Part shown: piece by piece, positions 40,196 through 59,602 of the stretch
Layout of the letters: every line of letters starts with the position of its first letter
Position numbering within the stretch: position 1 is the stretch's first letter
DNA from: Lasiodiplodia sp. COLG20
Taxonomy: Eukaryota > Ascomycota > Dothideomycetes > Botryosphaeriales > Botryosphaeriaceae
Direction: 5' to 3'
DNA length: 64,000 nt
NCBI GenBank assembly: GCA_009801085.1
Contig: VNWV01000001.1
Coordinates: 3,658,001-3,722,000 of the forward strand
Program-made: the position numbers and the translations under genes
The notes under the pieces: generated by a model
The model's input: the letters and a program-made list of their open reading frames with translations, nothing else
Told to the model about the DNA's origin: nothing
The model's database searches: none

Positions 40196-43100
40196 TCACG
40201 GGCATGGATCGAGGGCGTACCCATTGTCACCCTCGGCGCGGCTGACTAGGGCGCGCAGGTCGTTTTCGAGCGCAGCCGCAGTGGAGCGTGCACTCGGAAC
40301 GATGCAGAGAACGTCCCGCATGATGAGACTGAGGATGTCATGGATGAGCTGCGAACATTTCGGGTGCTCGTGAAGCTTCAGAACCCATTGCTCGACTCCG
40401 TCCCGTACGCCGGCGTTTCTCTTGTTCCCATCGTGAATGAGGCTCCAGAAGTAGTCGTCGCTGATGATGCCATCCTGATTCATGATGAGAGACTGCTCCA
40501 CGCGGCTTCGAGAGAAGTCGTCGATCGCCTGCCATCCATCCAGCATCCAGCTCACCCATTCGAGGAGCAGGCAGCCGAGACTCCACAGGTCGTAAGCGCG
40601 GGACACCGGCAGGTATATATGGCACTCCGGAGGTTCGTATGTTGGCGAGCTGTATATGGTGTACGGTGCTGCCTTCGTCCTTGTGTCGCGACCGTGAAAT
40701 CTTCCAAGTCCAAAGTCCGTAATCTGGCAGACATCACCTATGGAATCTCGAAACCATAGGATGTTCTCTGGCTTCAGATCACCATGTCTGCCGTATCTCT
40801 CCTCCCCACTGCTGACGCTCATCTTCGCCTTTCCTTGCGGTGTTTCCATCACCACCTTAGTTACTGAAAGCGGGATTGTGACTTGAAAATTGTGGATGAG
40901 CCGCAATCCTTGTGTGATGCCGATCATCTGTCGGAGTGACCAGAGCACCATATCTGGTACGAATTGCGGCTGGGGGTTGAGTTCCCAGTAATCCCTGAGA
41001 TTGCCCGTCGCCCGCCGGAAGACCAAATGGTAACTGCCTTTGTACTCGTACGAGAAAAGCAACTTGACAAGATGGTTGTTTGCCTTCCCCTCCAATGCAA
41101 CAAGGATCGTTCGCTCCTTTTCGAACTCTTCTTCATCATGAAAATGAAGCTTTTTGACCGCCACTGAAAGCGGCTTTAGATTCGTCCTAGTCAGCCGACA
41201 GCTATGGGATTAGAGAGAATTACTATGCCACTTACAGACTGAACAGGCCCCTGGTGCCAGTGATGATGGGCCGGGTGGATACTTGCTTCAAACACTTCGC
41301 TGTAAGCACCTTTACTAATCAATTCCTCATGAACGAAAGGCAGAATGGTGTTGTCGTGAAATATGTAGTGTTCCTTGTCCGAAAATATAGGTACAAGAAT
41401 GAACCATTGGTCTCTGACAAAAGCGAAGCGCGCAGCGCTCTGCCAGTCTCTTGAAGATCGTATCTCGGTGCCGTTCTGCCGTGTTAGAATGCCTGTGGCG
41501 GATTGGAAGACGAACGGAAGATCGGCGTCCGTCAGCCCCTCATCGATAAACGCGCATATCTCGGCCGCCTTTCCAATGTAACCGAGAATCGCGAAGAGAT
41601 TCCTGCCGAGGTTGTGCACATTTTCGACGTAACGCGAGTCAACACCGACCCGACATTGTTCCTGAATGGCAGCGAGCGTAATGATCCTACCCTTTCTATC
41701 CTCTGGGATGTAGAAGCACTGTGCTCCGGGTCGCTGCTCCATCAGCGCATCAAACAACTCGCGCTTAAGTTTAGAGGCAGCCTTCCGGCGTGCTTTAGCG
41801 GAATTTCCGACGTCAGAGTGAGGCATTTCTGGCGCAGCGCCGGAATCTGTTGCTGGATCACTCAATCCTATATCTATTTGATGGCGAAAGCGTTAGAGAA
41901 TACATATCTAACGAGGTTTGTTGCGTATTGGAGAACATGCCTGAATTTGAATAAAGGTTTTCCGGATTATTCGCGGGAGCTTGCTCTGCAGAGTCGTCGA
42001 GGGCTTCCGCCGGAGTCTGTTCCACGTTTTCTGAGGCTTCCGCACCGGGCTGTTCCCTAGAGCTGCCCGGGGCTTCCGCAACAGGCTGTTTCTTAGATCT
42101 GACCGAGGCTTTGAAGTACTGTGCTCCACGTCCCAGCTTAATCAACGGATGAAACAGCTTGTTCCCCTGAAACTTAGAGGCAGCCCTCTGGCGGGCTTCA
42201 GCGAAACGTCCGACGTCGGGCTGAGGCATTTCCGGCGAAGGCAAGGGATCTGTTACTATATTTGATGGCCAAAGCGTTAGAGGATATATGTCTGACAAGG
42301 TTTGTTGTGTATTGGTAGCTACTCTTATCACATATTGCAAGAGTATTTCGTTTCGGAGGCGTGTTGATGTTGAAACATACCTGAGTCATCTTGCGCTGAG
42401 CCTCCATTTTCGCCGCCAACATTGACACGCGGATTCTCGCAGGCATAGTCGTTGGCCCCCTGGATGGGTGTTTCAGTATCATTCACACTTTTTTCATCCA
42501 GCGCCCATAGTAATGATGTCAAAGAGAAATCATGTACATGGTCGGCTACATGGTTCAATAAAGATTCAATGTCCATGTCCATTGAAACGTTTGATTGCGG
42601 ACAAAGGGGGCAGGACCGAATTCTTGCAGGAGACGATCGAACATATGCTGACTTGAGAAAGGGTATTTCATGTGGCTGGATTGACCCATTGAGTGTCTTT
42701 TGCAAGTGAGAGATGAAGTCCTCCTCAAGCTCGAAGTCTCTTTTGTTACAGATCGTATCGGGACACCTCCAATACTTAAAACTTTCGTGTTCGGCCCGCA
42801 TATGTCTTGTCCAAGATTCTCGATTCTCGAAGAAATTCCATGGGTTTGGACAATTCTCCAAAACGCAGGTGTAAGGTTGAATGTCCTCAGCGAGGTGCTT
42901 TCTGGTGCATCACTATCAGCAATTGTCGCAGAAAATAATGCGAATTGATGAGCGAACCTCCACTTATTTTTTTGGGTAAATTCCTTTCCGAGAGATTGGC
43001 AACAACACGGACATTCGAAGAACTGTTGTCCGGGTGCCAACTTTGGCGGGTCAGGATAGTCCGCCCCAGTAGGAGTCGATGTAACTGCAGTTGTAGGCGA

Positions 43101-44018
43101 CTGTTTCACTGTCCTTACGTGTGCCTGAATCATCGAGACAGACGTAGTTGTTGAGATCCTAGTGGGTGAAACCGGCTGTGATGCTTCCATGGAGCGGGGT
43201 TGTGTGGACTGACGGACTGGCATCTTCTTGGTCGTAAGCTTCTTGGAATGAATCTGTTGATACTTAAAGCGGTTATGACGTCTCAAGTTTGCCTCTATCA
43301 GCCGCTTTTGGATTCCGCTCAGTCGAAAAGACTCCGGTTGAGATTCAGAAGCCTTATTTTCCGAGTCATGCACCATGAAGAAGTCCTGAAGGCGTGATTC
43401 CAGATCCTGGTATGTGTGAGGATCAAACTGGTCGTCTGCCTTTCGAAATCTGGAAGGGGCGTCTGTTTTTCTGATGGCAACCGTCAACCTGGTTATCTCC
43501 TTCAGAATGGCTTCAATATCGGCGATGTTTTGGTTGAGGATAGACCTCTTGCTGTCCAACACACCGGCTGTTGGTAACGTTGATACGGTCGGTGGAGTTT
43601 TCTTATGCATTACAAGATATACGTCGTCAGAATCTTCAGGTGATGCACCGTTTACGTTCGGTAGACGGAGAGGAAACATCTTCGCCATTTTTCGAGCTGA
43701 AACGTATATTATTACGTATATTCAATTGTCTGAATAATCTCGGGACTTGCCAGTTCTGCGACATTTTTTAAGGAGTGCCATCAACGTTCGTAAGAGGTTG
43801 ATGATCACGCGCTTGATATTGGGCTCTGAATCGAGCCTATGATCAAGTGAAGCTCGCTCTGTTGCAGAAGCACCTGCCCGCTCTGACCAGAGGTTGAAGT
43901 CTGCAAGCCTGTTTTCTGCCCAGTCATTCTCCGCTAGATAAGGCATCGCAATGCATTTCTCGAAAGATTTACGACAAGCAGCTGTAGCATCAAAGATGGT
44001 CGAGTACCGTGAAAGCAT
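40196..44018 (-). CDS. C2H2 zinc finger-protein kinase, module B
   Basis: Six exons (44018-43751, 43696-42958, 42901-42381, 42255-41941, 41867-41236, 41173-40196) give about 1150 residues. Order: N-terminal fungal region (1-90) with WAENRLADFNLW and SLDHRL; helical segment; C2H2 fingers (about 310-420) with CPCCCQSL, KHLAEDIQPYTC and CPDTIC...H; linker; pre-kinase region (FDALMEQRPGAQCFYIPE); glycine loop GAYSEVF; VAVKK (Lys832); HGDLKPENILW (Asp957); DFGLGRFHG (Asp978); SPTYEPPE. Catalytic residues are intact. Intron 1 (43697-43750) and intron 4 (41868-41940) use GC donors (GCAAGT, GCATGT). The linker contains a tandem duplication that carries its intron along. The gene is divergent from protease B (285 bp between ATGs). 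The domain set suggests a signalling sensor. It is one gene, not separate finger and kinase genes, since copy C joins both parts in a single exon. Confidence 0.75.
41710..42322 (-). repeat. Tandem duplication within the module-B kinase gene
   Basis: Two direct copies of about 210-230 bp (42112-42322 and 41710-41937) lie about 390 bp apart. Shared blocks include GAGGCATTTC, AAAGCGTTAGAG and AGGTTTGTTG (plus strand). Each copy contains an intron followed by an exon reading (S/A)PEMPxxDVG...AR...AASK. The downstream copy has a GC donor where the upstream copy has GT. Paralogue C lacks this duplication, so it arose after the module duplication or was lost in C. Confidence 0.8.
41965..42100 (-). 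repeat. Imperfect 11-13 residue repeat in the kinase linker
   Basis: Between the two duplicated blocks the coding strand reads three related units: AEAPGSSREQPG, AEASENVEQTP and AEALDDSAEQAP. On the plus strand this appears as repeated GGCTTCCGC-type blocks. It looks like a small coding minisatellite within a disordered linker. Confidence 0.6.
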
Positions 44019-44303
44019 GGCTCACGATGTAGCTCTATCGATCAAGAACAGACTTCGAGGCATAGGCATAGTTCGAGCGACAAAAGGTCTTTTTTTCGGA
44101 TCGTGGGGTGAAGGCACTTGATGAGGCGAGGCGAGTCATGGCGTGTGGGGTTACCTACGTGTCACACGTAACTAAACCACGGAGGGAAGTGAAGAACCAC
44201 AGCTGATACAGGCCGACTCAGCCTTCAACTCATCGTCGCCCGCACTTCCCATCCTGCCTCATTCCGGACAGTCTCTTTGATTCCTACTCTGTATCAATGA
44301 CCC
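44019..44303. promoter_or_regulatory. Divergent promoter of module B (kinase B / protease B)
   Basis: Only 285 bp separate the two start codons, so the kinase and protease genes must share control sequence. A 15-bp inverted repeat TACGTGT-C-ACACGTA lies at 44156-44170; its two ACGTG cores resemble bZIP or bHLH sites. The block TGGCGTG(T/C)GGGG is also found in the corresponding promoter of module C, but the inverted repeat is not. Factor identity is inference. Confidence 0.45.
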
Positions 44304-47195
44304 ATGGACCACGCAGATCTACGTCTTGCCAGGGAAGCCCTGCCCGTTGTGAGTGAAATTGCAACTGAATTGGGTGCTAAGCTTGCGAGCCCTCCCCTTG
44401 TTGCGTTCGGAGCGCGCCTAGCTTGTTTCGTCGCCGAGCTCCCTGGCTCAAAAGCGGGCTCGATTAACAGCCCAACTTCGGACGACGTTTTATACAGCGT
44501 CCTTAAAGAGGTCGAAAAAGCCTGCACTGTAGGTACTTTGAATAACTCTTCTGTCACAATTTTGGTGGGCTGAATCGACATGCTTGAAGTGGTCTGAGAA
44601 GCAGGAAGAACTCGATCTTTCTACTTTAAGAGGTCTAGTAAAGAGCGGAAGAAAAAGTCAAAAAATCTTTTCTTGGAAAGCATGGTTTTCCGCAAGAAAA
44701 CTGCGCAGTAATACTCGCAGACACCTGAGGGTATATGCTTCGAGCACGGCAGAATTTGCAAAAATGCTAGAAGTAATCAAGAAGGTTACTACGCCCAGAG
44801 ATGAAGACTCTCTACTCGAAACTTCCAAATACAGTCTGGTACTTGCAGGAGAGGGGGAAATATCCCCGGACTATCCCTCACGCGTGAACAGTGAGCTTCA
44901 CGATGTGTTGAGCTTTCACGTGCCCATCTGCTCTTGCCAGCATCTTACAAGGTTGCGGCTGAATCCACGAGATTGCGTTCAAGAGAGAGGGCCAATTTGC
45001 TTCGAAATGCTCTTCTCTTCGCAGACGGATTTTGCCCGTCCTCCAACCACAACTGAGTGGATGGAAACAAAGATGCTTGTTCCAAGGTACCGAAATCAAA
45101 TTACTTTTCCTAAGCTCTGTATGGGTGATTGACGTTCAGTGAAGCAAGAATCCGAGAGAATCGCGGCCTACCTGCTATGATTCCGCTGCCAATCCGTCTG
45201 CTGCTTCGGAAACATTACCGGAGAGCAATTGGATGATAATCAACGCAGGTGATTTTTGCGCGGCGTTGAAATCGTCCGTAAATACTCAGTTGTATTTTCA
45301 TATTCAGCATCCGTGGTTGAGCAAGATGGACAGAGAAGAAGCTCTCGAGCGCAAGGCCGAAGCTACGGGAAGTATCCCGCTTTACCAAGCTTTCGAGACA
45401 CGATACATGAGCCGCAAGACACGATGCATCCTCGCGTACACACTTGCTAAATCCGTTTGGCAATACTACGGCTCGGATTGGATGAAATATCCCTGGACCA
45501 GGGAGAATATCCACCTCTTGAACGATGAACTGCCACAGCGAGACTTCAGCACACGTTCATACCTGTTCAGGCCGTACTTTGCCGTAGACTTCACGGGAGA
45601 TACAAGAACTGTTCCAGAATATATTGAGGGTGGGATGCTCTGGCATCGCTATCCTCAGGTTCTGGCCCTCGGCATCTTATTGATTGAGGTAGCCAAGGGA
45701 AAGCCTTTCGAAATTCCAAACATTCTCCTCGATTACTCCGAATATTCTATCAACCAATACGTCAAGTCTGCAATGATAGCGTTGGAGAAGGACGGACTCT
45801 TTGAGAAGAAGGAAGACGACTTTGATTCGTACCGCAATGCAGTAGAGAGTTGCCTGAAATTCGGCCAATTCTTCGAGCTTCCCTGCATTTCTGGTCATCA
45901 ACAGCCAAGAGGAAGAGAAAATAGTCTAGAAGAGCGCCGAGCAATTATCTACAGGAAAATTGTTCAACCATTGAAAGAGCTGTTAAAAGGTACTTGGTGG
46001 TTAGCGGGGATTGACGAAATGAGGCAAGATCTTGGTCTTGAATTGACAAATTCCCTCAACGATACGTCCGAGATATCCCAAACAAGGCCTACCCGATCTG
46101 CCGACAACAGAAGAACCGAACCGGGTCGAGGAAATCCAAACGGCCAGCGACTTCTGCTCAATAGAATCGCTCGGTAAGAACTCTATGCCTCGGAACACTC
46201 AAAATGCTAATGGCTTCTCAGAATAACACCTTCATCGTGGATTTCTGGACTTTTGTCTATATCCGAGACCTTTTCAGAGCTCAATGCCTCCCAGCCTGTT
46301 CGCGTAGCAGTAATTGACACCGGTTGTGACCTTACCGCACCAATCTTTGACGTTTCAGGGTACGAGTCTCGCTTAAGGGGACATTGGACAGACTGGCTTG
46401 ATGGGTCTCCTCGACCACTGGATGAACACGGTCACGGGACTGAAATAGTCTCCTTGTTGCTGCGTATTCTGCCGAATGCCGAAATTTTCGTCGCGCGAGT
46501 GGCGAGAAACCAACAGGACCTTGATACGGCTGGTGAACTTATTGTTAAGGTGGGAACGCATTCCGGCAACAAGTAGAACTTTACTAAGATGCACCCAGGC
46601 AATCGACCATGCGGCGATCGAGTGGACGGCTGATATCATTACCATGTCCTTCGGGTTTCCCCGCGACGACCCGTCAATTCGACAGGCTATCCAGAGAGCC
46701 GAAATTGCTCGTCGTCAGTCTATTATCTTTTTTGCCGCAGCTGCCAACGAGGGATCAAATACGGAAGAGCTTTTCCCTGCAAACTTTGATCCCGTCATCC
46801 CTATACGTGGCACCGACTGTGCTGGCGCTTTTGTACCGCTCTACGATCCTGATGTTGCTCGTACCAGACGTGGTATGCAGTTGTACGGGACTCTCGGAGA
46901 AAACGTACCGTGGTGTTGGCCGGATATAGATAGACTCAGCTCAGGGTGTTCAATTGCGACACCCATTGCCGCTGGAATCGCCGCTTTGATCATACAATGC
47001 GTATCATCCACACCGACTTTCAATGAGAACGATCAACAAAAGATACGGACGAGAAGAGCAATTCTGGAAGTATTTTATGAAATTTCCGTTGAGAAAGCTG
47101 TCAACCGGCGCTACATTAACCCGCGCAATCTTGTAGATAATGGGGGTCAGCCAAATATGGCCATGATTCGACATGTATTAGGCAGAATTTCCTAA
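44304..47195 (+). CDS. DUF7580-like plus S8 subtilisin protease, module B
   Basis: Five exons (44304-44528, 44590-45086, 45145-46173, 46222-46549, 46599-47195) give about 891 residues. Residues 1-240 are a helical N-terminal region (start MDHADLRLAREALPVV). The middle (about 280-570) matches the fungal DUF7580 pattern: CILAYTLAKSVWQYYGSDW, ENIHLL, HRYPQVLALGILLIEVAKG, EERRAIIYRKIVQPL. The C-terminal third is peptidase S8, with Asp616 (AVIDTGCD), His655 (HGHGTEIVSL), oxyanion Asn in AAANEGSN and Ser811 (SGCSIATPIAAG), so a complete triad. There is no signal peptide, so it is cytosolic. It sits head-to-head with kinase B and ends 2 bp before the stop of the gasdermin-like gene. By analogy with Podospora HET-Q2, cleavage of that neighbour is inferred. 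Exons 2 and 5 equal those of copy C in length. Confidence 0.8.
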
Positions 47196-47197
47196 GT

Positions 47198-48049
47198 TCA
47201 CCAACTCTCTTCATCAGGGAAAGAGATACAAACGCAAACTTCCTTTCCATCAGTGAACTCAACTGCTTTCGGTGAAATATCCTTTCGATCAAGAGCCGAT
47301 AGGCTGGTTGCCGTAGCATCCGCTGTCTCCACCTCAGTCTCTGGTTCCTTCTCCTCTTTGTCCCCAAGGAAGGCAGCTTTTGACCGGAATTCCCTTGTCT
47401 CCAAAGACTTTTCTTTCCAACCCTTCAGTCGAATTTCCAGCAGCTGGTAGGCGAAGACGACATCTTCTCGGGCCCGAGATGAATCCCGCTGGCTTTTATC
47501 CCTCGTGAGTTCCACGTTGCCTGCGAGGGAAACACCTTCAACCACAGGAGCGGAGGCGCCAGCACTGATGCCCTTGTGCACCCCGCGCTCGGTGGCTATC
47601 TCCAGATTCTCGGCAATCTTGATGCCGGAGATCATGTACACGGGACATGATCTGACACGGCCGGATTGCAGCACGTTTCGAACTCTCGGAACATTCACCC
47701 GCTTGTGAAGTTCTTCCTCACTAGGTTCGGACTTGAAGTAGGTAGTCTTGAGGCTGCTCATGTTGTACTCAGTGCTGGTCTCCTTGCTGAAGTTGGTGCT
47801 CAAGTTGATGCCGACATTTGCCAGGAACTGCGCCCAGACACTGACGCTAACACCCTGTCTGGCACTGCGATGAGTGACGAAGTCGTCTTCGAAGACGGTC
47901 TCAATCTCCGGTTGGGCCGTGCCCGAGTCAGTCTTCGTGAGGACCCGGTGCGGCCGAAAAGGATCTGCAATGATGTTCCCCAACGCGATCGGTCCATCAG
48001 GGCGAAAATTAAAGTTGGGCGCAAGTAGATAGGTCCTAACGGGCGCCAT
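47198..48049 (-). CDS. Fungal gasdermin-like protein (RCD-1/HET-Q1 type), module B
   Basis: A single exon of 283 residues. The N-terminus (TYLLAPNFNFRPDGPIALGN, then ADPFRPHR) is the pattern I associate with fungal gasdermin-like proteins RCD-1 and HET-Q1, which form membrane pores that kill the cell. The length fits (about 260-280). The middle has IYMISGIKIAENLE-like strands (here VYMISGIKIAENLE) and the end of the core is FAYQLLEIRLKGW. After residue 229 comes an acidic linker (DKEEKEPETEVETADATATS) and a tail of about 35 residues; HET-Q1 is activated by removing a comparably short C-terminal piece. The gene is convergent with the S8 protease gene, with stops 2 bp apart, as expected for a protease/gasdermin pair. 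The family call rests on recognition and context, without a search; an uncharacterised fungal family is the alternative. Confidence 0.68.
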   Translation of the reverse strand: MAPVRTYLLAPNFNFRPDGPIALGNIIADPFRPHRVLTKTDSGTAQPEIETVFEDDFVTHRSARQGVSVSVWAQFLANVGINLSTNFSKETSTEYNMSSLKTTYFKSEPSEEELHKRVNVPRVRNVLQSGRVRSCPVYMISGIKIAENLEIATERGVHKGISAGASAPVVEGVSLAGNVELTRDKSQRDSSRAREDVVFAYQLLEIRLKGWKEKSLETREFRSKAAFLGDKEEKEPETEVETADATATSLSALDRKDISPKAVEFTDGKEVCVCISFPDEESW

Positions 48050-50281
48050 ATTGATGAGTGATGGATAATTGGGGACACTTTTTTGTGAAAGCAACGTAAA
48101 GAAACGTGAAGAATACTAATAAGTTCAATAACGTTAGTGCCAGAGAGGATAGCCCTGTCGTCTTAAGCAGGTCGATGACACAAAATAGGCAGCCATTTCT
48201 ACAAAAAGGCCACACAGCAGGTTTTGCAGAGAGATTTCCTACAGATCCTGTGGGGCTCTACGAAAAATGCGCTGTGCAGCCTCGGCCATAAGCTTCAATT
48301 TGTTTCCCGATTATCCTGCATGCTCGCTTACCTCGCAGCGCATGATACGTGTACGACGCTAGTAGGCCTGAGTGCGGAATCCCTCGTTCACCGGTACCCA
48401 CTTGGCCTAGATGCCATTTTCTTTTCCTTTCCGCAAGGCTGGACTAACGAGCTAGGTATGTCTTGCAAAATTGGGAGGTTACCACTTCAGAGCCCTTAAC
48501 CCATGTTAAAGCGATTCCCAGCTTAATATATGGTAATTCTAATCTCGCGCGTTGGCTCTTCTGCAGGGGTGCTCTCTGCCAGTCCGCTGATCCGACAGGT
48601 CAAGGCAACAGCAGAACACGCAACAAGGTATGATTGGCGACGTAACTAGCAATTTGGTATATAACACCTCCTTCGAGACTACCCATAGGTGCTTTGTGAA
48701 ATGTTTTTTTGCCTTAGGGCATACCTTTAGCCATTGAGCATCGTCTATCATTTTTCTACTCTTTTTACAACCGTTGATGGATTCTTTGCCGTTCCAGGTC
48801 ATGGATGGTCGCAATGTCGACCCTCAAAAACTCATGGCCCTTTTAGAGGAGAATTTTGGCAAGAACGCTTTCCGAGTTGAGGTGACAGCGTTTCCCACAA
48901 AAGCCACTGATCATGCCGTTGACTGAACAATTCTTCAGCTGAGATTGAACCGCTACAATATCTATCCCACCTCAGATCCTTCATCATGCAATCGTCTCAC
49001 TCCAGTATGGTCATGATCAACCCATTCCGCTTATGGACAAGCACATGCTAAGAGACTCATCTCAGTCACAAATACAAAATTGCCACGTAGCGCGGCGATC
49101 CAGGTCTTGAATCTTTTAGAATACAAGCAAGAGAACGACGTTTGTATTAGTCTTAATACGATCTTTATTGGAGGATGGGAGTGAGTGTAAATAGCACGCT
49201 TGCAAAAAGGAAAACGGCTTCATTGTTGTGCATTATCGGTCGGAAAATAGCCATTAGGTTAAATGGCCCAACGTATTGTCCTTCAATCATGTACGAAACC
49301 CTCTTGCAGCCGACAATTAGAACGCAATTGCATTCTCGTGAAAAATTGGGGTTCTGGCCTATCATATCACTAGAGCGAAAACATGGAAAGATTTGTGCGC
49401 TAGCATTCCGCTACATTACAACTTCCAGTTTCTCAGTAGTTACATAGTATACAAAATCTACTAGATTTGGTCAAAAAAATTGTTGCAAGGCTACAAGCGC
49501 GAATTGCAACTGCACCCGCCGAGGCGATCCTCGCGGAGAACACCCCCAAAAGGGGATAAATCAGTTGCTGATGGTGTCCCTGCGAGTGGTGGGGGCTTTC
49601 AGCATTTCAGCCGCTCGCCCCACAGCCAATAACCGCCGCATGCAATATCACTACTCAGCTGCAAGGAACACTCGGAGCCACGTATCATCATACAACTTGC
49701 TTTTCGTACCCAGGCCCCGAATGCTTCACTGGGCTGCAACTCCGGATCACAAAGGATTGTGTCAGTGCATGTAGACTTCAGGCGCGTAATAGCTATTCAT
49801 ACAATACCACCTTCTACAATGGGCAAAGGATCATGCTGACGATGTTATTTTCTCTCCGCCGCCCTATGGCTTCCATCCGCCTAGCTCAGCATCTCTGTAT
49901 GCGTCGACGCTCTCGAGCAATTTCTGGGAATCTCTGCTATCTTGCTACTGGTTGTTCAAAAGTGGAATTGAGACGACAACATTCTTGAGGTCAAAATAAA
50001 GATCATGATACCAGTGCCAAAGAAGAAACGAGATCTCCCATAGCCGAATCCGAGAGAAAGAAGTGGCAAGACTCCATTCGCATTATTCCATCATGCGGTA
50101 AAAGAAATTTGAGGAGAGAGGAGAATAGCATCTCAGGCCAAATATGACATGTATCTAGAGGTTTGAACTCAAAGCACCTCCGCAGACACTTTATTATTTG
50201 ATAAGAAAAAGTTGAGAAAGCTTTCACGGCCACTTAGAGAGCTGGTATTGAAGTTTAAGACTTCGCGTTCCCCTTAGTATC
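48050..50281. other. Intergenic between modules B and C, 2.2 kb
   Basis: AT-rich spacer. A block at 48320-48375 is about 80% identical by eye to 58470-58525 (shared core ATACGTGTAC), so sequence upstream of the gasdermin gene was duplicated along with the module. A short gene remnant lies at 48567-48926. The remainder shows no recognised gene. Confidence 0.5.
48567..48926 (+). pseudogene. Gene remnant with GRNVDP tail
   Basis: A segment after a TTCCAG acceptor reads VMDGRNVDPQKLMALL...AFRVEV and ends at a TGA at 48924-48926. It is related to the minus-strand remnant at 38373-38699. A possible preceding exon (48567 to about 48627) reads RQVKATAEHATR before a GTATGA donor, paralleling ATRHG in the other remnant. 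No full-length gene is visible, so this is probably the decayed 3' end of a gene once present in the island. Family unknown. Confidence 0.35.
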
Positions 50282-53200
50282 TTACATTTCGAAGCTTTTG
50301 TGTTGTGGTGGAAAGCTGCTACCTCTACTACCAATCGCGGGGCGTCCGATCGGATCTGGAGCTGGTGATAGCTTGAAATTCTTTCGGAATTCCTGTAGCT
50401 CAAGTATTTCAGGTTCATCAGAGAAGGCGACGCTTTCTCGACTCCTCTTCGGCTTAAGCGCTTCGTGTGATTTGATGCCGCGGACCTTACGTAGAGAAGC
50501 TTCGACGAGATATTCATCGCTCTTATTCGCCTTTTCGCGGAAGTCGTTAAAGCGCCTGCACATCTCCCCAGTTTCGATACGTTCTGTGGCGTCAACTTTC
50601 AGGAGCTCGTCCATGACCAGGTCCAGCACGTTGTGGAGGAACTCCGAGCACTTTGGCTCATTATGGAGATCTCGAACCCAAGTGTTTACCCCATCACGCA
50701 CATACGGGCGTCTCTCCCCGTTAGCCCCCTTTACGATTGTAAAGAAGTAGTCGTCGCTGAAAAAATCGATGCCTGATTGTTGACTGCGATGATCAGAGAA
50801 GGATTCGATACCTGGGGATCCTCGCAGGAGCCAAGTGACGAACTCGATATACAAACATCCAAGACTCCACAGATCGTATTTGCGCGAGACTGGCTCTTGC
50901 ATTCTACACTCGGGTGGTTCGTAGGTTGGTGAACCGACAATATGATGGGGCGGATATTCTGTCTTCGAATCTCTTCCGTGAAAGCGCCCAAGGCCGAAAT
51001 CGGTGATCTGTAGGATGCCTCTATCGCCATATTTGTTCTCAGGGGCGTGCTGAAACCAGATGATATTCTCAGGTTTGATGTCGCCGTGTCGGCTAAAGAA
51101 CTCTTCTCCGGGGGAGACCTTTAGTTTGACGTCTTTTTGTGGCGTGCGTACTTCCCCCTCGATGACGAGAGGGTGTAGAACCCGGACGTGATGTATGGTG
51201 TAGAGAGCGGTTGCAATTCCTCTCATTTGCTCAAGTGACCAGCGTAACGTAGCCTTGTCGAACTTTGGGTCCGGATGTTCTTCCCAATACGTCCGTAAGT
51301 CGCAATGTGCTCGCGGAAAAATCAGGAAGAATTCACCATCCACCTCATACGAGGCTAACATTTTGACCAGATGCAGGCGCGGTCTACTTTTATTTCCGAG
51401 TCTATAGAGGATGCTTTGTTCGTTTTCGAAACGTTTGCGGTCCTTCGTGAGGAGCTTCTTGACTGCAACCTCCAGAGTTCCATCCTAAAATATACTTATT
51501 AGTAAGACTGATCAGGTAATAATTATTGACACTTACCTTCTGTGACCACTCTTGGCAGAATCGGTGATGTGCTTTGTGTATACGTGCTGTGAACACTTCA
51601 CTATATCCTGCCACCGTCCTCCAATCATTTAGCGAGTCTCCCGGCTCGCGAGCGATGAATGGAAGAACGTGGCTCTGGTGAAGTACGTAATGTTCCATAT
51701 ATCTGAACACTGGGGAAAGCATGAGCCACTGATCTCGGCTGAAAGCTTCCCGATCCTTTGAAGACTCCCATCTTTCAGGGACTTGAACAATACCACCTCC
51801 ATTCCTACGTTTTAGTGAGAACAGACACCTGCCGCCGTTGACGCAGCGTTGTAACGGCAAGTCTTCGTCAAAGACTTGCTCATCCAAAAATTCAAGAATT
51901 TGTCCAGCCTTCCTGATGTATGCAAGTATGGCAAAGAGGTTCTTAGCACAGGAATGGACGGTCTCGGTATTTTTGTCAATGGTCGCTGCATCGAGGTTCG
52001 GATAAGCTGTCTGAAGCTCTCGCGCGATTACCTCTTTCGTTACGATCTTTTCCTTCGCACTCTCGGGGATGAAGAAGCGATGTTCGCGTGAGAGATCTTC
52101 GACGCGGGCAGCATAAAGTGCTTCGTACAGTTCGTCTGAGCTTGGCGGTGAGCTCAACCTCGAGTCCCGATCCGCCTCTATGTCGACCTCGTAGAGATCC
52201 CATGGTAAAGACCTCAGGGAGAATGAATGAACATGTTCTGCAATGTGGTCGAGCATCACATCGTGAGCATCGAACGGACAAAGCGGACAGCGTTGAGCCC
52301 GGCTCAGTATTGAACGAGCACATGCCAGTGCGATGGCTGGGAAAGCATCTGTGGGGACTGCGTCTTGATGTGTCTCTTGCAGGTGAGATTCAAACGCAGC
52401 CTCGGTCTCGAAGGTTCTTGGTACAGGACATATTGGGCATATCCAATGATTCGTGCACTCATGCGGGCTTTTCATGTGGTCCATCCAAGCAGCTCGGCTG
52501 GCGTATAACTCCCATGGGGTAGGACATCCTTCTAGAATGCAAGTATAAGGAAGAACATCGTCTGCTAAATGTTTCCTAGATACATAATTTTCAGTTATAG
52601 TTTTTTGCGATGATAGTAGATACTACAAACCTCCAATTGCTTTCTTGGGCATATTTTTGTGCAAGAGTTTGACAGCAATATGGGCACTTGAAAGAGCCTT
52701 GCCCATCCATAAGATTCGGTGGCGGAGGATATTCAACCATGGCGTTAATTGAAGACACATTGCTTGTAGCTGTCGTGGATGATGCACGGAATGAAAGTTC
52801 GATAGACGACTTAACCGGCGTCGCCGAAGTGGCCGATAAATCCTCAAAACCGTGAGAGCCTATCAATTCGTGCTTCAGGGTTCGTGTTGAGCGAGTTCGA
52901 GTGGCCCATTTCTTTACTCTGGTTACAAGGTTGTCAAGCAAAGTGGATCTCCATGGTCGTAGAATACGTATTGGTGGCGGTTCTTGTGGCTTATGTTCTG
53001 GCATCAGAAGGTCCTCTTTGGCTAACTTCTCGGAATGCCTTTGCGCGTAGATGAATCGATGTCGTCGTCGTAGATTTGCTTCTACGAGTCGGCACTGGAT
53101 GCCTGTGAGCTCAGGTGGTCTTGATTCCTGGGATTGACGCATTTGGCGAATCAGGAATTCAAGATGGACTTTTAGCTCCAGATGATCTTTCGAATCGAAA

Positions 53201-53794
53201 TATCTGTCGGCTTTTTGGAGTCTAGAGCGTACTCCAGACCTGCGGATGGATATAGTCAACTTCAAAATCTGCTTCATTACAACCTCTACATCTGCCTTAT
53301 CTTTATCTAAAGCAGTCTGACTTGATTCGAGTGTAAATCTCATTTGGCTTCCTTCTAGTTTTCGTGATCCTTGCAATTGTGTTGTTAAATGTGCATGTTT
53401 CGGCACATTCAGGAGGTTTGTGCTTCGTCCCATTGGGTTTTGCAAATGGACGTTCGAAATATGTTGAGCTGAAAAGGGCAATCAGGTTGAAATTCAGCTT
53501 CCAATCTTACAACTCATGGACTGAAAACCCACCTTTCAATTGACAATCGTCTACAAGCCTTTTCAGCGCTTGTAAAAGATTGGTGTACACTGCTTTGAGA
53601 TCATTTTCTGATGAAAGCCTCCAGTCAAATGATGCGCTTCCCGGTGCGAAGACTCCAGCCCCTGATGACCAAAGGTTAAAATCCGCGAGCCGATTTTCTG
53701 CCCATTCCCCATGCATCAGCGGTGCGAATGATAAAGACTTCTCGAAAGATGTACGACACTGTAAGGCGACATCACGAATCTGGGTGTCTCTCAT
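50282..53794 (-). CDS. C2H2 zinc finger-protein kinase, module C
   Basis: Four exons (53794-53533, 53468-52631, 52575-51537, 51484-50282) give about 1113 residues, paralogous along its length to the module-B kinase. N-terminal region with WAENRLADFNLW; helical part; C2H2 fingers (about 345-440) with CPYCCQTL, KHLADDVLPYTC, WICPICP and a final HLQETH; pre-kinase region (RFFIPESAKEKIVTKEVIA); glycine-loop equivalent AGYSEVF; VAVKK (Lys722); HGDIKPENIIW (Asp848); DFGLGRFHG (Asp875); SPTYEPPE. Exon 3 runs from the fingers into the kinase N-lobe, proving that both belong to one protein. The basic, Ser-rich tail (KPKRSRESVAFSDEPE) resembles the tail of kinase A. It is divergent from protease C, with 292 bp between the ATGs. 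Start: ATG 53794, since the upstream in-frame TTG is unlikely. Confidence 0.78.
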
Positions 53795-54086
53795 TGTCGC
53801 GACCAAGAGATCGGTGTGTATCGACTATCGACAATCAAGAAGAAGAGAGAAACTACACAACTTGGGAGCAGAACAAGGCAAGGCGAAGAAAAGGCTCGCT
53901 ACAGATTCAAGTAAGTACGAAAACATTCTTGGCGTGCGGGGCTAAGTTACACAGAGCCACGGGGTAGCCGCTGCCTAAAGAACACCGCAGTTCGCGAGGC
54001 CCTAATCCACCTTGACTACACCTTGTCTCTTTGCCGCATACATCCAATAAGAAGATTCTCAATATTTTGGCTCAACATTGCTCGTT
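53795..54086. promoter_or_regulatory. Divergent promoter of module C
   Basis: The 292 bp between the two start codons is almost the same as in module B. The block TGGCGTGCGGGG near 53931-53942 matches the module-B promoter; the inverted repeat found there is absent. The shared block is a candidate common element. Confidence 0.4.
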
Positions 54087-57015
54087 ATGAGTAATTCGTC
54101 GGACTTGCTCTATCTAACGAGGGAGGCAATCCCAGCGGTCGCACGCATCGCAGCAACACTCGCGAATGCGAACGACGCGTCGGATTCAACAACCACATCT
54201 TTCGTCAAGTTGAGCGTTTGTCTCTACATCTTCGCAAACGAAGTTGACCATGGCAATCTTCCAAAAGGCAGAGATCAGCAGTGCAAGATACATGCGGTCC
54301 TTGAAGAAGTGGAGAAGGCTTTAACCGTACGGTAGTCTCCATCTACACAATTCCACATGTAGCTAATAACTCTTTGCCTAAAGTGTCCAAAAAATAAGAG
54401 GCTAGAGCAGCTTCTTACACTACATGCAATTGCTGCAGCCAAAGAACAGAAAACCAGGAAACCTTTCTTCCAGAGATTATTGCGAAGGTCGAATCAACAT
54501 GCAACCGCTCAAGCTTCTTTGCGTAGATACCTTGTATCTGACCCTGAGCTCAAGTCTTTGCTCAACCTTACGCGAGAATTCTCAGCAGTGGGTGCGGCCA
54601 ATGTTACGCATGGCGAGTCTTTTGGATCCTATTCAATCTTCGCAACCAAATGGGACGACATTCCAGTGCATCCGCAGCGAGTCAACGCCGAGCTACATAA
54701 TGTCTTAGACCTGCACATAAACTGTTGCCCTTGCAGGCATTCAACGAGACTACGCTTGAAACCCAGCGAAATGCAGGTCAACGACATGTTCGGTTTCGAA
54801 TTTCTCTTCTCAGCCTCGCCCCCTCCTCTACCTTCCACTTGCCCTATAGGATGGCGAGAAGTCAGAATCCTCATTCCAAGGTAAATCATCCATTTGATAA
54901 ACCGGCACATCGCGTGAGCTAAATCTTCAAAATAAAGGAGGGACCCCCTTAAAAAGCAAGTCAAAATTCTGAATCTAGCACCACATGGACCTCTCCGAAC
55001 CACCTTCAACACGCCCTTCGAGGTCATAAGGCCTGGAAAATTCTGTGAACTATTGAACGAAAGTAATGGCCGTATACCGTGTCTCCGGATCGACAACCCA
55101 ACCTTAGGGAAAGTTGATGGTGGAACATTTCCAACTCCCCGAGTGGAAGTTGAGCCGGTAGAAAGTACCCCACTCTCCAACGCTCTGAGATTACGCAGAA
55201 TGTCAAGAAGAAACAAGTGTGTACTCGCCTTCACGCTAGCAAGATCTGTCTGGCAATACTACGAGTCAAAGTGGATGAAACTGCCCTGGACTCACGAAGA
55301 TATTCACCTTCTTGACGACAAGAACGCCACATCAAGCGAAGCAAATGACGCTTACAGGACATGGAGACCATACCTTTCGATGTCTTTTGATAACCAAGGC
55401 CAAGAAATTCCGGAATACTATGCCGCCGAGGGCGTCATGCATCGATATCCAAAAGTCCTTGCCTTAGGGATTTTGCTCATTGAGATATTACAGGGCAGCC
55501 CTGTGGTGCCACGAAGCGGAAACATAAACTTTGATCCGCAAGGTGTCATTGATCTTTACATATCAGGCTGGATTACTGTCTGCCGCGGCATCCTCAGGCA
55601 TGAAGATACCTATCCCGCGTATGCTTATGCGGTAGAGGCCTGCCTTGACAGTCACCTCTTCGCCGGGGTTCCTTGTTCATCAGAGACGAACGAAGGCTTG
55701 GAAGAACGAAGAGCGATCCTGTACCAGCGCGTGGTGGTCCCGTTGAAAAGGCTTCTTGAAGGTACCGGATGGTCTCACAAATTGGACGAAAACAAAAAAG
55801 AATTGCTACCTCACCCTACTGAAATCCCATCGATCTCTCATTCAACGTCTACAATTCCTGTAGATTCAGCTGTAGCCTCACGCCCAGAGGAGTTCACACA
55901 GCCGTACGTCGATGGTGGAGTTCAACGTTTGGATGAAGCAGCTTCTGAGGCCGGCTTACTTGGACAATTGAGGACGTAAGATATCCCACCGATGTCCCCT
56001 GTTTCGCATGAGAACTGACCAGGCAAAAGCCATTCACCAGAAGCTTGGTTGAAGAGATTTGAACGAGTCAGTCGTTACGTGAAGTCCACTACTAAGGGCA
56101 ATATCCCTGTTAGGATTGCAGTTTTGGATACAGGGTGTGACTTAGACGCATCAGTATTCCGTGTCCCGGGAACAAAGCAAAGTATCACAGACCGTTGGAA
56201 GGACATGGCTGGCACTGAGAAGATGCCAATCGATAAAGACCCTGGGAAACATGGCACACGAATTGTTTCAGTATTGCTGCGGATCGCGCCAAATGCTGAA
56301 ATATTCGTCGCCCGGGTTGCTTCTGATAAAGAAATGCTGCAAAAGTCCCACCGACACATCGCCGATGTAAGTTCTCCAGATAATGGTCATTGAAACCATA
56401 ATTCTAAGGCAAAGTCAGGCAATCATCTATGCTGCAAAATATTGGAATGTTGATATCATTTCGATGTCTTTCGGATTCGAACAAGAGATCGACGTCATCC
56501 GACATGCAATTGATGAAGCGCAAACCATCAAAGACCAGTCGATAATTCTTTTGGCAGCAGCTGGAAATGACGGCGGCAACTCATCAGAGCTATTCCCAGC
56601 TTGGTTAAGCTCTGTCATATCCATTCGAGGTACCGATCACAGTGGGGATTTTGTTTCCTCATTCAATCCCAGCAATCATGACTTCAACTCAGGGCAGCCA
56701 GCGTATGGCACTCTGGGGGTGAACGTGCCTTGCTCATGGCCATCTGAGTCTGGCTTAGAAGAGATGACCGGCTGCTCTATCGCCACTCCGATCGCTGCTG
56801 CAATCGTAGCTGTGATCATAAACTGTGCATCTGAGAGCGATCAAAAGCTGTTACGCACACAGAGGGCCATTTTGACGGTCTTCAAGAGAATGGCAGCCGA
56901 GCGGTCGAACGGGCTATGGTATCTTGCACCATGGCAACTTGTCCATACAGATGATCAGGAGGGTCAAAAATCATTTTTGAACGGTGCAATCCAGAAACTT
57001 CCTAGACGACACTGA
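54087..57015 (+). CDS. DUF7580-like plus S8 subtilisin protease, module C
   Basis: Five exons (54087-54326, 54384-54880, 54938-55975, 56030-56366, 56419-57015) give about 902 residues, with exons 2 and 5 exactly as long as in copy B. N-terminal helical region (start MSNSSDLLYLTREAIPAV), DUF7580-like middle (CVLAFTLARSVWQYYESKW, EDIHLLDD, HRYPKVLALGILLIEILQG, EERRAILYQRVVVPL), then S8 with Asp625 (AVLDTGCD), His666 (GKHGTRIVSV), Asn in AAAGNDGGN and Ser824 (GCSIATPIAAA). The triad is intact. Cytosolic, with no signal peptide. It lies between a divergent kinase and a convergent gasdermin-like gene (110 bp between stops), so cleavage of that neighbour is the inferred role. The GTACGG donor of intron 1 is weaker than the GTAGGT used in the other copies. 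Confidence 0.8.
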
Positions 57016-57124
57016 AGCTTTTAGTGGTATTTATAGGCTCATTCATGTAAATAAATTTTGGTCTATATTCTTCGTGATGACAAACTGTATGATTGAGTGA
57101 CTTCCTTGTATGTTCTCATTCCGA

Positions 57125-57982
57125 TCAGACATTCTTAAAAACAACTTCGGTAATTTCATCTTCTCCATCTTTCATGCTGATTTTTGCCACCGTGACACTT
57201 CCTGCGACGGCATTTAAAATATCTGACGAAGTGGCAACGCTGACGTCGGCTTCCAAAAGCTCATCATCTTCCTCGTCCGAACTATCACTAAGAAAGGCCT
57301 GTCTAGATTTGAACTCATCTACTGCAAGATTCTTCTCTCTCCAGCCCTTCACGCTAACCTTCAGTAGCTTGTAGGCAAACACCACATCGGACCCAGCTCG
57401 AAAAGAATCCGTCCGGCCTTTACCTCGTGACATATCCACATTCGCACCCACGACTATACCCTCAACGACCGGAACCGTTGCACCGACGCTCCCTCCCTTC
57501 ATTGAGAGCTTCTCAGTCGTAGCTTCCAAGCCTTTGGCAACCTTGATTCCGGTGATCATGTAAATGGGGCGGCAGAAGGCGCTGTTGTATTGCATGATGT
57601 TTCGCACGAGCGGATCCTTGAGCCGTTCAGTGACCATTGCATCCGTAGGTTCAGTCTTGAACATGATGGTCTCGAGCGATTGCATCTTGTACTCCGTGTT
57701 CACCTCCTTGCCCTGCTGAGAGCCGACATTTCCTCCAATGGTGCTGACAAATTGTGCCCAGATGCCCACGCTAATATTTCGGCCGGAGCTTTGGTTGAAA
57801 GTGTAGTCGTAATCAATTCTGGATGTGATGTCGGGATGAGGCTTGTTGGTTTCGAGGGTGGTCAGAGGCCTGTGCGGCTCGAACGGGTCCGCGAGGATGT
57901 TTCCGAGTGCTATCGCGCCGTCCGGAGCGAAATCGAAGTTTGGAGCAAGTAGATAAGTCTTCTTAGCTGTCACGCTCATCAT
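57125..57982 (-). CDS. Fungal gasdermin-like protein (RCD-1/HET-Q1 type), module C
   Basis: A single exon of 285 residues (MMSVTAKKTYLLAPNFDF), paralogous to the module-B protein over its whole length: PDGAIALGNILADPFEPHR, IYMITGIKVAKGLE, VVFAYKLLKVSVKGW. A very acidic linker (DSSDEEDDELLEAD) at residues 233-246 precedes a tail of about 40 residues, the place where an activating protease cut would separate the pore-forming part from a short inhibitory tail if this is a HET-Q1-type gasdermin. It is convergent with protease C. The two copies differ most in linker and tail, as might be expected for protease-specific or recognition-driven change; that last point is inference. Confidence 0.68.
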   Translation of the reverse strand: MMSVTAKKTYLLAPNFDFAPDGAIALGNILADPFEPHRPLTTLETNKPHPDITSRIDYDYTFNQSSGRNISVGIWAQFVSTIGGNVGSQQGKEVNTEYKMQSLETIMFKTEPTDAMVTERLKDPLVRNIMQYNSAFCRPIYMITGIKVAKGLEATTEKLSMKGGSVGATVPVVEGIVVGANVDMSRGKGRTDSFRAGSDVVFAYKLLKVSVKGWREKNLAVDEFKSRQAFLSDSSDEEDDELLEADVSVATSSDILNAVAGSVTVAKISMKDGEDEITEVVFKNV

Positions 57983-58754
57983 AAGCTTGTTTGCGAAAGA
58001 GGCTCGAGGCGGTAGTGAGGTGCGGAGAAGGTAGTGGGGTAGGCGAGCAAGATCTTAACGAGAGAGAGCACGAGAGAGGGGCACCTCTCTTATTGAGAAC
58101 ACTGCGGCGCATGATTACTGAAATTTAGGCAACAATTGCCAAGATATTACACTGCAGATTATGTACTCTCAGCCACCTTATTGCAAACGAAAGATAATTT
58201 TGGCCAAAATTACAACTCACGAATGGAAGGCTCCATGGAGCCTTCCATTCGTGAGTTGTGATGCCTTGTGCCGGGAATTGCAACACTCGCTAGATTTGAT
58301 TCCAAAGCAACCTTATTTTTTGGTCATTATAAGCCGAGAATTAGGGGCAAACTGCTGTCATGAACCTGCCCTACCACAATGTGGGCTGCAGCAAGGCTTG
58401 GTGGGCGGGACACCTCGTTGACCAATCCAAAAGGAGTGGAACGCGCAGAAGTCTTGCAAAGATCCCCACGTTGCTCGTTTACTTTGCAGCTTATCATACG
58501 TGTACAACTCCAACAAGGCTGAAGGCTTAAGCTGAAGCCCTCAGCTACCTGCGCGAGAACCCATTACATGTTATATACAAAGAGTGAAGCTTTAACACGT
58601 GACTAGCATGTGACTTGCTACCTCAACACATGCTTAGCCAAGAAACGAGGCGACGCGGCCAGGAAGTCAGCTTTCTCCGCATCTCTCTTCGAATTTCTCA
58701 GTTCACCCCTCCACGAACAGCTTCCATGATATCCGTCTTCTCCCTGTCGACTCC
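57983..58754. other. Intergenic, between gasdermin C and the truncated protease copy
   Basis: This contains the perfect 48-bp palindrome at 58212-58259 and the block at 58470-58525 that is similar to the spacer following gasdermin B. The order gasdermin, shared block, DUF7580 gene suggests that a further module began here and was truncated. Confidence 0.5.
58212..58259. repeat. Perfect 48-bp palindrome
   Basis: The sequence from 58212 to 58259 equals its own reverse complement, with arms of 24 bp starting ACAACTCACGAATGGAAGG and a CCATGG centre at 58233-58238. There is no spacer, so it could extrude as a hairpin. The bases beyond (T at 58211, G at 58260) break the symmetry. It is not inside a recognised gene. 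Confidence 0.9.
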
Positions 58755-59411
58755 ATGGATTACTCCAATCTATCCCTTGCCCGAGAAACCTTGCCCGTTG
58801 TAAGTAATATTGTGACCGAACTGGCTACTGCCGTTATAAGCGCTCCCCTAGTAAGCGTTCCTCTTGTGCTGTTCGGCGCACATCTGGCTTTCTTCGCTGC
58901 CAAGCTTCCCAGCTCAGCACGCGGCTTGAAAGACAAGCGAAGCCTGGACGATGTATTATGTAAGGTTCTTGAAGAAGTCGAAAGGGCCTGCACGGTAGGT
59001 TCTTAGCTTGGCACCATTCTACTGTTGCGATGACGGTCCGCTGGGCTGACACAACTGAAGTGGCCCAAAAGAAAAGAAACTCCGGATCTTTCCACTTTAA
59101 AACTGCTGGCAAAGAGAAGAAAATCAAAACAGAGAACCTTTTTTTGGGCAAAGTTGTTTTCTTCAAACTCATTGCACAGTAAAGTTCGCGAATGTTTAAG
59201 GGAATATGCCTCGAACCCTGTCGAATTTGCGAAAATGCTGGACGTGATCAAGGAAGCTGAAGGTTGCCTGAAATCCGGCCAGTTCTCCGATTTCCCCTAC
59301 GTTGCTGGACAGCAGGAACACAAGGAGAGTGATAAGAATCTGGAAGAGCATCGCGCCATCATCTATCGAGACGTTGTTCAACCATTACAGGAGGATTCTG
59401 AGAGGTACTAG
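58755..59411 (+). pseudogene. Truncated DUF7580-S8 protease gene copy (D)
   Basis: Exon 1 (58755-58994, start MDYSNLSLARETLPVV) and exon 2 (from 59061) are clear homologues of the protease genes in modules B and C, with the same intron position. After EFAKMLDVIKE the reading jumps straight to AEGCLKSGQFSDFP, which in copy B lies hundreds of residues later, so about 1 kb of the DUF7580 region is deleted in frame. Near 59398 an extra base relative to copy B shifts the frame into a TAG at 59409-59411. Recognisable homology continues to about 59460 and then ends at the 3' side of the LamB/YcsF gene. The S8 domain is absent. The remaining 196-residue frame is open, so expression as a small protein cannot be excluded. 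Confidence 0.75.
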
Positions 59412-59602
59412 ATGGTTTACAGGGATCGGCAAGCTAAAGCAAGATCTTGATCATTGATCAACGATAGTGCAGAGTGTATCTGCATTCGCGATTGGGCGAA
59501 AAGGTTCGTATTGAATGACAGAAATAAGGACGCCACTTGCTCGCCAATCAAGATACATTTGTACTCAGCGCTTACATTTTGAATCAGGTATTGGTCCAGT
59601 AC

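What the first reader, a model, noticed from the sequence alone, without database searches (positions are those of the whole stretch)
40196..57982. Duplicated kinase / S8 protease / gasdermin module: candidate multi-component fungal cell-death system
Seen: two consecutive units (40196-48049 and 50282-57982) share gene order and orientation: C2H2-kinase (-), divergent DUF7580-S8 protease (+), convergent protein of about 284 residues (-). Splice positions and exon lengths are conserved and catalytic residues are intact. Known: in Podospora anserina the gasdermin-like HET-Q1 is cut by the adjacently encoded S8 protease HET-Q2, causing cell death in non-self recognition. Inferred: each unit is a self-contained death circuit in which the kinase protein senses or licenses, the protease cuts, and the gasdermin forms pores. 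The constant kinase partner and the tandem duplication of the entire unit are, as far as I know, not described.
Basis: partly seen in the sequence, partly recalled or inferred. Interest (0 to 1): 0.95.

Follow-up and report, generated by a model that had tools for sequence, protein, structure and literature searches.

The report
Three-gene fungal gasdermin death unit
A fungus carries two neighbouring copies (and a third elsewhere) of a gene trio that looks like a built-in cell-suicide switch: a pore-forming protein, the enzyme that probably cuts it into action, and a head-to-head partner gene that may control the enzyme.

Summary
In detail: both units have the same gene order, orientation and splice positions, with catalytic residues intact. 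The small proteins are fungal gasdermins: a 37-row profile matches RCD-1 and HET-Q1 and the predicted fold matches RCD-1 first. A protease beside a gasdermin is a known pair, and fusion of such proteases to kinase-like domains is mentioned in print. New is the third gene, and it is not a constant kinase: a third intact unit on another contig has the same C2H2 module without a kinase. What stays constant is a head-to-head pair of a C2H2-module gene and a DUF7580 gene; 14 of 16 C2H2-module loci found in this genome sit that way, 2.0-3.3 kb apart. The three units share a 15-base element between K and P that has no fourth exact copy in 43.5 Mb. The trio duplicated as a unit, long ago. Best reading: a three-component variant of the HET-Q1/HET-Q2 design in which the C2H2 protein controls a protease that cuts the gasdermin. 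Function is untested, and other fungal genomes could not be surveyed.

The parts
40196..44018 (-). KA, C2H2-module protein kinase, 1151 aa; exons 43751-44018, 42958-43696, 42381-42901, 41941-42249, 41240-41867, 40196-41186
   Evidence: splice model; Pkinase E 1.6e-15
44019..44303 (.). 285-bp stretch between the KA and PA start codons; shared element TCATGGCGTGTGGGG at 44136-44150
44304..47195 (+). PA, helical N-terminus - DUF7580 - S8 protease, 891 aa; exons 44304-44528, 44590-45086, 45145-46173, 46222-46549, 46599-47195
   Evidence: splice model; Pfam; catalytic motifs
47198..48049 (-). GA, gasdermin, 283 aa, single exon; stop codon 2 bp from that of PA
50282..53794 (-). KB, C2H2-module protein kinase, 1113 aa; exons 53533-53794, 52631-53468, 51537-52575, 50282-51484
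   Evidence: splice model; Pkinase E 5.1e-17
53795..54086 (.). 292-bp stretch between the KB and PB start codons; shared element TCTTGGCGTGCGGGG at 53927-53941
54087..57015 (+). PB, helical N-terminus - DUF7580 - S8 protease, 902 aa; exons 54087-54326, 54384-54880, 54938-55975, 56030-56366, 56419-57015
   Evidence: splice model; Pfam; catalytic motifs
57125..57982 (-). GB, gasdermin, 285 aa, single exon; conserved Phe230 followed by a 55-residue tail
   Evidence: model and fold matches
32779..34744 (-). K3: linker and kinase of the KA/KB type without the C2H2 module, 47-51% identical in the kinase
58755..59448 (+). broken relic of a PA-like protease gene (matches PA 1-140 and 475-537 only; no S8 part found)

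Best explanation
Each unit encodes a three-part cell-death switch. P is an intracellular subtilase whose front half (helical region plus DUF7580, a domain related to protein kinases without catalytic motifs) keeps it off. K is its head-to-head partner, probably expressed from the same stretch of promoter; its C2H2 module, and in A and B its kinase, receives a signal and acts on P. Active P cuts G near a conserved Phe at the end of the gasdermin core; the acidic tail of about 55 residues is lost and G forms pores in the plasma membrane. Shown by sequence: gene order, domains, intact catalytic residues, gasdermin identity, co-duplication, shared element. Inferred: cleavage and its site, pore formation, that K controls P, and in which direction.
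For: Gasdermin identity. Intact S8 and kinase motifs. Unit C repeats order, orientation and splice pattern. A, B and C group together for P (100/100) and for the K module (93/90). K-P start distances of 285, 292 and 303 bp and a shared element with three exact places in the genome, one per unit. C2H2 module and DUF7580 head to head at 14 of 16 loci. P0151 joins DUF7580-S8 and C2H2 module; two Trichoderma proteins join C2H2 module and S8. A Phe followed by 55-56 residues with 27-29% Asp+Glu ends GA, GB and GC; HET-Q1 is reported cut at F238 with loss of 40 residues (PMC10989679, passage).
Against: No functional or expression data. Unit C has no kinase, so kinase action cannot be general. Another gasdermin of this genome (C56) has an S8 protease and no C2H2 partner, so K is not needed for every pair. 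The shared pattern was built from the three stretches themselves. DUF7580 core versus kinases directly: only 7.6%; its structure model was poor. The Phe is not invariant in the wider alignment: Leu, Tyr and other residues occur.
Confidence: 0.55

Rival explanations
1. A standard two-gene protease-gasdermin death pair. K acts only on expression: its C2H2 fingers bind the shared promoter element and set the level of K and P, and the kinase serves something else.
For: Shared G-rich element in the K-P stretch of all three units; the two-gene design is the known one (PMC10197012, passages).
Against: The C2H2 module occurs in proteins with NACHT/NB-ARC, WD40, kinase, phospholipase C and S8 domains and joined to DUF7580-S8 in P0151, which fits signalling better than transcription.
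Confidence: 0.2
2. Cleavage-independent death by mixed pores: diverged gasdermins GA, GB and GC activate each other, as RCD-1-1 and RCD-1-2 do, and the proteases are secondary.
For: Closest solved fold is RCD-1; two gasdermins 43% identical lie in one cluster; RCD-1 works without cleavage (PMC12881547, passages).
Against: Each gasdermin keeps an adjacent protease with intact triad and a long acidic tail; GA and GB occur together in one genome, so their meeting cannot by itself be the signal.
Confidence: 0.08
3. A decaying cluster left by gain and loss of defence genes, without a present function in most copies.
For: Protease relic and module-less kinase beside the units; broken C2H2 and gasdermin pieces together on C34; KA needs two GC-AG introns.
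Against: The nine gene models of A, B and C are open and keep catalytic residues at 38-50% identity; GB groups with two Diplodia proteins (100/99), so it has lasted across genera.
Confidence: 0.1

Closest known systems
HET-Q1/HET-Q2 of Podospora anserina and HET-Q2-like protease/gasdermin two-gene clusters
   Same: Gasdermin with short C-terminal tail next to an intracellular-type S8 protease; about 60% of fungal gasdermin genes are reported near S8 protease genes (passages).
   Different: A third, head-to-head gene duplicates with the pair; P carries DUF7580; three related units in one genome. HET-Q2 is a 388-residue S8 protein, and het-Q1 and het-Q2 are alternatives at one locus (passages).
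Gasdermin-controlling proteases fused to predicted kinase-like domains (mentioned in PMC12881547, passage)
   Same: PA, PB and PC probably belong here.
   Different: The passage names no third gene and no C2H2 partner; no details seen.
RCD-1 of Neurospora crassa
   Same: Gasdermin fold; best structural match.
   Different: RCD-1 is not controlled by cleavage (passages).
RIPK3/MLKL necroptosis (kinase acting on a pseudokinase)
   Same: Possible kinase-to-pseudokinase step between K and P, by analogy only.
   Different: P ends in a protease; no HeLo or 4HB domain was found in P; unit C has no kinase.
Head-to-head sensor/helper NLR pairs (plants; rare in Sordariales: 13 of 225 clusters of two NLRs, PMC12258605, passage)
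   Same: Divergent pair with a short shared stretch.
   Different: Pfam finds no nucleotide-binding domain in K or P.

Membership tests
Fungal gasdermin (fGSDM) | Sequence relation to known gasdermins | tested here: met
   37-row profile: RCD-1 8.8e-24, HET-Q1 2.1e-14; single GA found nothing, single GB 0.003
Fungal gasdermin (fGSDM) | Gasdermin fold of the pore-forming domain | tested here: met
Fungal gasdermin (fGSDM) | Pore formation and killing | not testable with these tools
   needs experiment
HET-Q2-like protease/gasdermin cluster | S8 protease gene with intact catalytic residues within 10 kb of a gasdermin gene | tested here: met
   units A, B and C
HET-Q2-like protease/gasdermin cluster | Protease removes the gasdermin C-terminus | not testable with these tools
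   candidate site Phe227/230/227 only
Protein kinase (K) | Kinase domain with Lys, catalytic Asp and DFG | tested here: met
   KA and KB, both with HGD in place of HRD; KC has no kinase match
Pseudokinase (DUF7580 of P) | Kinase fold | tested here: inconclusive
   same stretch of L057 and L058 hit by DUF7580 and Pkinase; profile link in two steps 98% and 98%, directly 7.6%; structure model poor
MLKL-like HeLo-pseudokinase protein | HeLo/4HB N-terminal domain in P | tested here: inconclusive
   profile comparison of P N-termini with HeLo stretches gave 0.1%; no HeLo match by Pfam in PA, PB or PC
NLR | Nucleotide-binding domain (NACHT or NB-ARC) | tested here: not met
   no such Pfam match in KA, KB, KC, PA, PB or PC

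The most novel reading that the evidence does not exclude
The head-to-head pair of a C2H2-module gene and a DUF7580 gene is an undescribed two-protein receptor design of filamentous fungi, present many times per genome, with exchangeable effector ends (S8 protease, nucleoside-phosphorylase-like domain, kinase). In units A and B a kinase partner acts on a kinase-like-domain protease that cuts a gasdermin, so that a kinase-to-pseudokinase step, as in necroptosis, feeds a protease-to-gasdermin step, as in pyroptosis, within one 8-kb locus.
Probability: 0.3. Interest if true: 0.88.

Novelty: new variant of a known kind. Interest (0 to 1): 0.72.

Why it matters
What controls the proteases that switch on fungal gasdermins is named as open in a 2025 review (PMC12881547, passage). 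A third gene that duplicates with the pair, keeps a head-to-head place in three units and recurs beside DUF7580 genes across this genome is a concrete candidate controller that can be tested in yeast. If the pair is a general receptor design, it adds a class beside NLRs to fungal immunity.

Tried and rejected
Single-sequence searches against solved structures: GA nothing, GB E 0.003; the profiles settled it. The homologue search with the protease alignment gave one protein at E 1e-10 or better, P0043, among 7,993 scored candidates, so adjacency by locus tag could not be tested for P. Locus tags seen for C2H2 hits (120 of 204 listed) and gasdermin hits (42) showed no adjacent numbers by eye; Cercophora newfieldiana has both on contigs of equal length, which proves nothing. 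No close K relative from Diplodia or Lasiodiplodia is among the 120 listed. The model of P0043 from 8 rows had mean pLDDT 44.6; I did not search with it. HeLo-likeness of P or K N-termini: 0.1%. Exact 8-mers common to the three K-P stretches: none; the shared element varies at two places. In the window the element pattern with up to 2 mismatches is found twice, against a mean of 0.46 in shuffles, 6 of 100 shuffles reaching 2. Repeat-induced point mutation: indices of the units do not stand out. Own-genome family scans for Pkinase and S8 score only part of the candidates, so I draw no absence from them. Loci L034, L035 and L036 were fetched and not studied. A fold search in the viral library was not run.

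Papers: Clave 2022 (PNAS) is not held and was not read, so I cannot exclude that DUF7580-S8 or a C2H2 neighbour is described there. Searches for DUF7580 and PF24476 found no paper; searches combining gasdermin or fungal NLR with C2H2, zinc finger, kinase or subtilisin (titles and abstract starts of listed papers) showed none on such a trio. Of five papers opened (PMC12881547, PMC10197012, PMC10989679, PMC12258605, PMC9815663) I saw passages only.
Full report
WHAT IS THERE. The window is C1:3658001-3722000 of a 43.5 Mb genome in 88 contigs. The closest named gasdermin relatives are from Diplodia seriata, Lasiodiplodia theobromae and Diplodia corticola, genera of the Botryosphaeriaceae (family recalled). 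Two units, A (40196-48049) and B (50282-57982), each hold a C2H2-kinase gene K (-), a divergent DUF7580-S8 gene P (+) and a small gene G (-) convergent with P. Splice models give KA 1151, KB 1113, PA 891, PB 902, GA 283 and GB 285 residues. Catalytic motifs of kinase and protease are present. Pfam's C2H2 matches in K are below the curated cut-off.

A THIRD UNIT. The own-genome searches with GA and with GB each found the same 7 places: GA, GB and five others. C2:690603-691436 belongs to an intact third unit C (C2:684973-691436) of the same order and orientation, KC (-), PC (+), GC (-). KC has the N-terminal module and fingers but no kinase; its C-terminus shows further Cys/His pairs (by eye). 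C56:1670618 has an S8 protease gene about 1.9 kb away, with TPR-like repeats by eye, and no C2H2 partner. C1:459375 and C1:126921 contain stops; C34:2475840 is a 40-residue piece about 0.7 kb from a broken C2H2 piece.

A HEAD-TO-HEAD PAIR ACROSS THE GENOME. I compared places of C2H2-module matches (18 matches with an exon of KB, 2 dropped because they match only the linker before the kinase) with the 20 places of DUF7580. Fourteen of 16 C2H2 loci have a DUF7580 locus 2.0-3.3 kb away and all 14 are divergent. Random placement gives 0.9% per locus within 10 kb, and P 3.6e-27 for 14 or more; common descent of the pairs makes this a loose figure. The two without a partner are the broken C34 piece and the weakest match. 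Six of 20 DUF7580 loci have no C2H2 match near them. At C12:1842-1846 kb the DUF7580 protein ends in a nucleoside-phosphorylase domain (PF01048, 2.7e-7), and the C2H2 gene is followed by an S8-like stretch seen by eye that Pfam does not recognise.

OUTSIDE SUPPORT. The K alignment matched 204 proteins, 120 of them listed. P0151 of Conoideocrella luteorostrata carries a DUF7580-S8 protease (about residues 21-899) followed by the C2H2 module (about 890-1452), and two Trichoderma proteins carry C2H2 module plus S8. P0151 may be a true fusion or two neighbouring genes merged by annotation; in either case both parts lie together in another fungus. By hand count of the precomputed Pfam columns of the 120, 15 carry nucleotide-binding (NACHT/NB-ARC type), 12 WD40-type, 10 kinase, 7 phospholipase C and 3 S8 domains (domain names partly recalled).

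SHARED HISTORY AND PROMOTER STRETCH. Trees group A, B and C for P (100/100, 6 rows) and for the K module (93/90, 16 rows, with long branches that the tool warns of). In the G tree (16 rows) GB groups with two Diplodia proteins (100/99), while the order of GA, GC and P0006 is open. So the trio most likely duplicated as a unit before those genera split. The K and P starts are separated by 285, 292 and 303 bp. B and C share the 17 bases TTCTTGGCGTGCGGGGC, and A has a close form. The pattern TCWTGGCGTGYGGGG has three exact places in the genome, one in each unit; 31 places have one mismatch and 472 have up to two, against 265 for the reversed control. The pattern was made from these three stretches, so the test is only that no fourth exact place exists.

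DUF7580. Pfam hits DUF7580 and Pkinase on the same stretch of L057 and L058, which also carry HeLo domains; in L056 the kinase match is weak (0.036). Profile comparison links the DUF7580 core (17 rows) to these three distant members (98%), and these to kinases (98%), but the core to kinases directly at 7.6%; controls gave 0.1-0.2%. Motif scans of P found no HxD-type loop or DFG that fits. I take DUF7580 as a probable, not proven, pseudokinase. A 2025 review already mentions gasdermin-controlling proteases fused to predicted kinase-like domains (PMC12881547, passage), so this part is not new.

MECHANISM AND LIMITS. The likeliest working is HET-Q1/HET-Q2-like: P cuts G behind the core, pores form, the cell dies. 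In GA, GB and GC a Phe in AFL/TFL is followed by 55-56 residues with 27-29% acidic residues; in the wider alignment Leu, Tyr and others stand there. K is the candidate controller. Kinase action is possible in A and B but not in C, so the C2H2 module is the better candidate for the general function. Nothing here shows expression, cleavage, killing or a trigger, and the trio could not be looked for in other species.

ARRAY DYNAMICS. Beside A lies a kinase gene without the module (32779-34744); beside B a broken PA-like relic (58755-59448). The cluster has 46-51% G+C between flanks of 57-60%. This fits gain and loss of units, as reported for fungal gasdermin genes (PMC10197012, passage).

Noticed in passing
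G000 contigs C1, C2, C7, C9, C12, C23, C34, C40, C67 (places): C2H2-module genes and DUF7580 genes lie head to head at 14 of 16 C2H2 loci; only three of these pairs are the gasdermin units.
   Followed up: partly
G000:C12:1841-1847 kb (L033, L048): A pair whose DUF7580 protein ends in a nucleoside-phosphorylase domain instead of S8, and whose C2H2 gene is followed by an S8-like stretch seen by eye.
   Followed up: partly
58209-58262: A 54-base, 96% palindrome about 230 bp upstream of GB; no second place in the genome was found.
   Followed up: partly
41713-41931 and 42113-42315: A 71% identical direct repeat inside KA that looks like a duplicated intron-exon piece.
   Followed up: partly
47195-47198; 57015-57125; G000:C2:690586-690590: Stop codons of the convergent P and G genes lie about 2, 109 and 1 bp apart, so transcripts of A and C very likely overlap at their 3' ends.
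   Followed up: no
P0030, P0031, P0034: Three gasdermin-profile matches carry a precomputed patatin domain (PF01734), perhaps gasdermin-patatin fusions.
   Followed up: no
L056, L057, L058: Distant DUF7580 proteins with HeLo N-termini and a kinase-like region, an MLKL-like architecture.
   Followed up: partly
G000:C1:456843-460175: A broken gasdermin copy beside a gene that reads by eye like a HET-domain protein.
   Followed up: no
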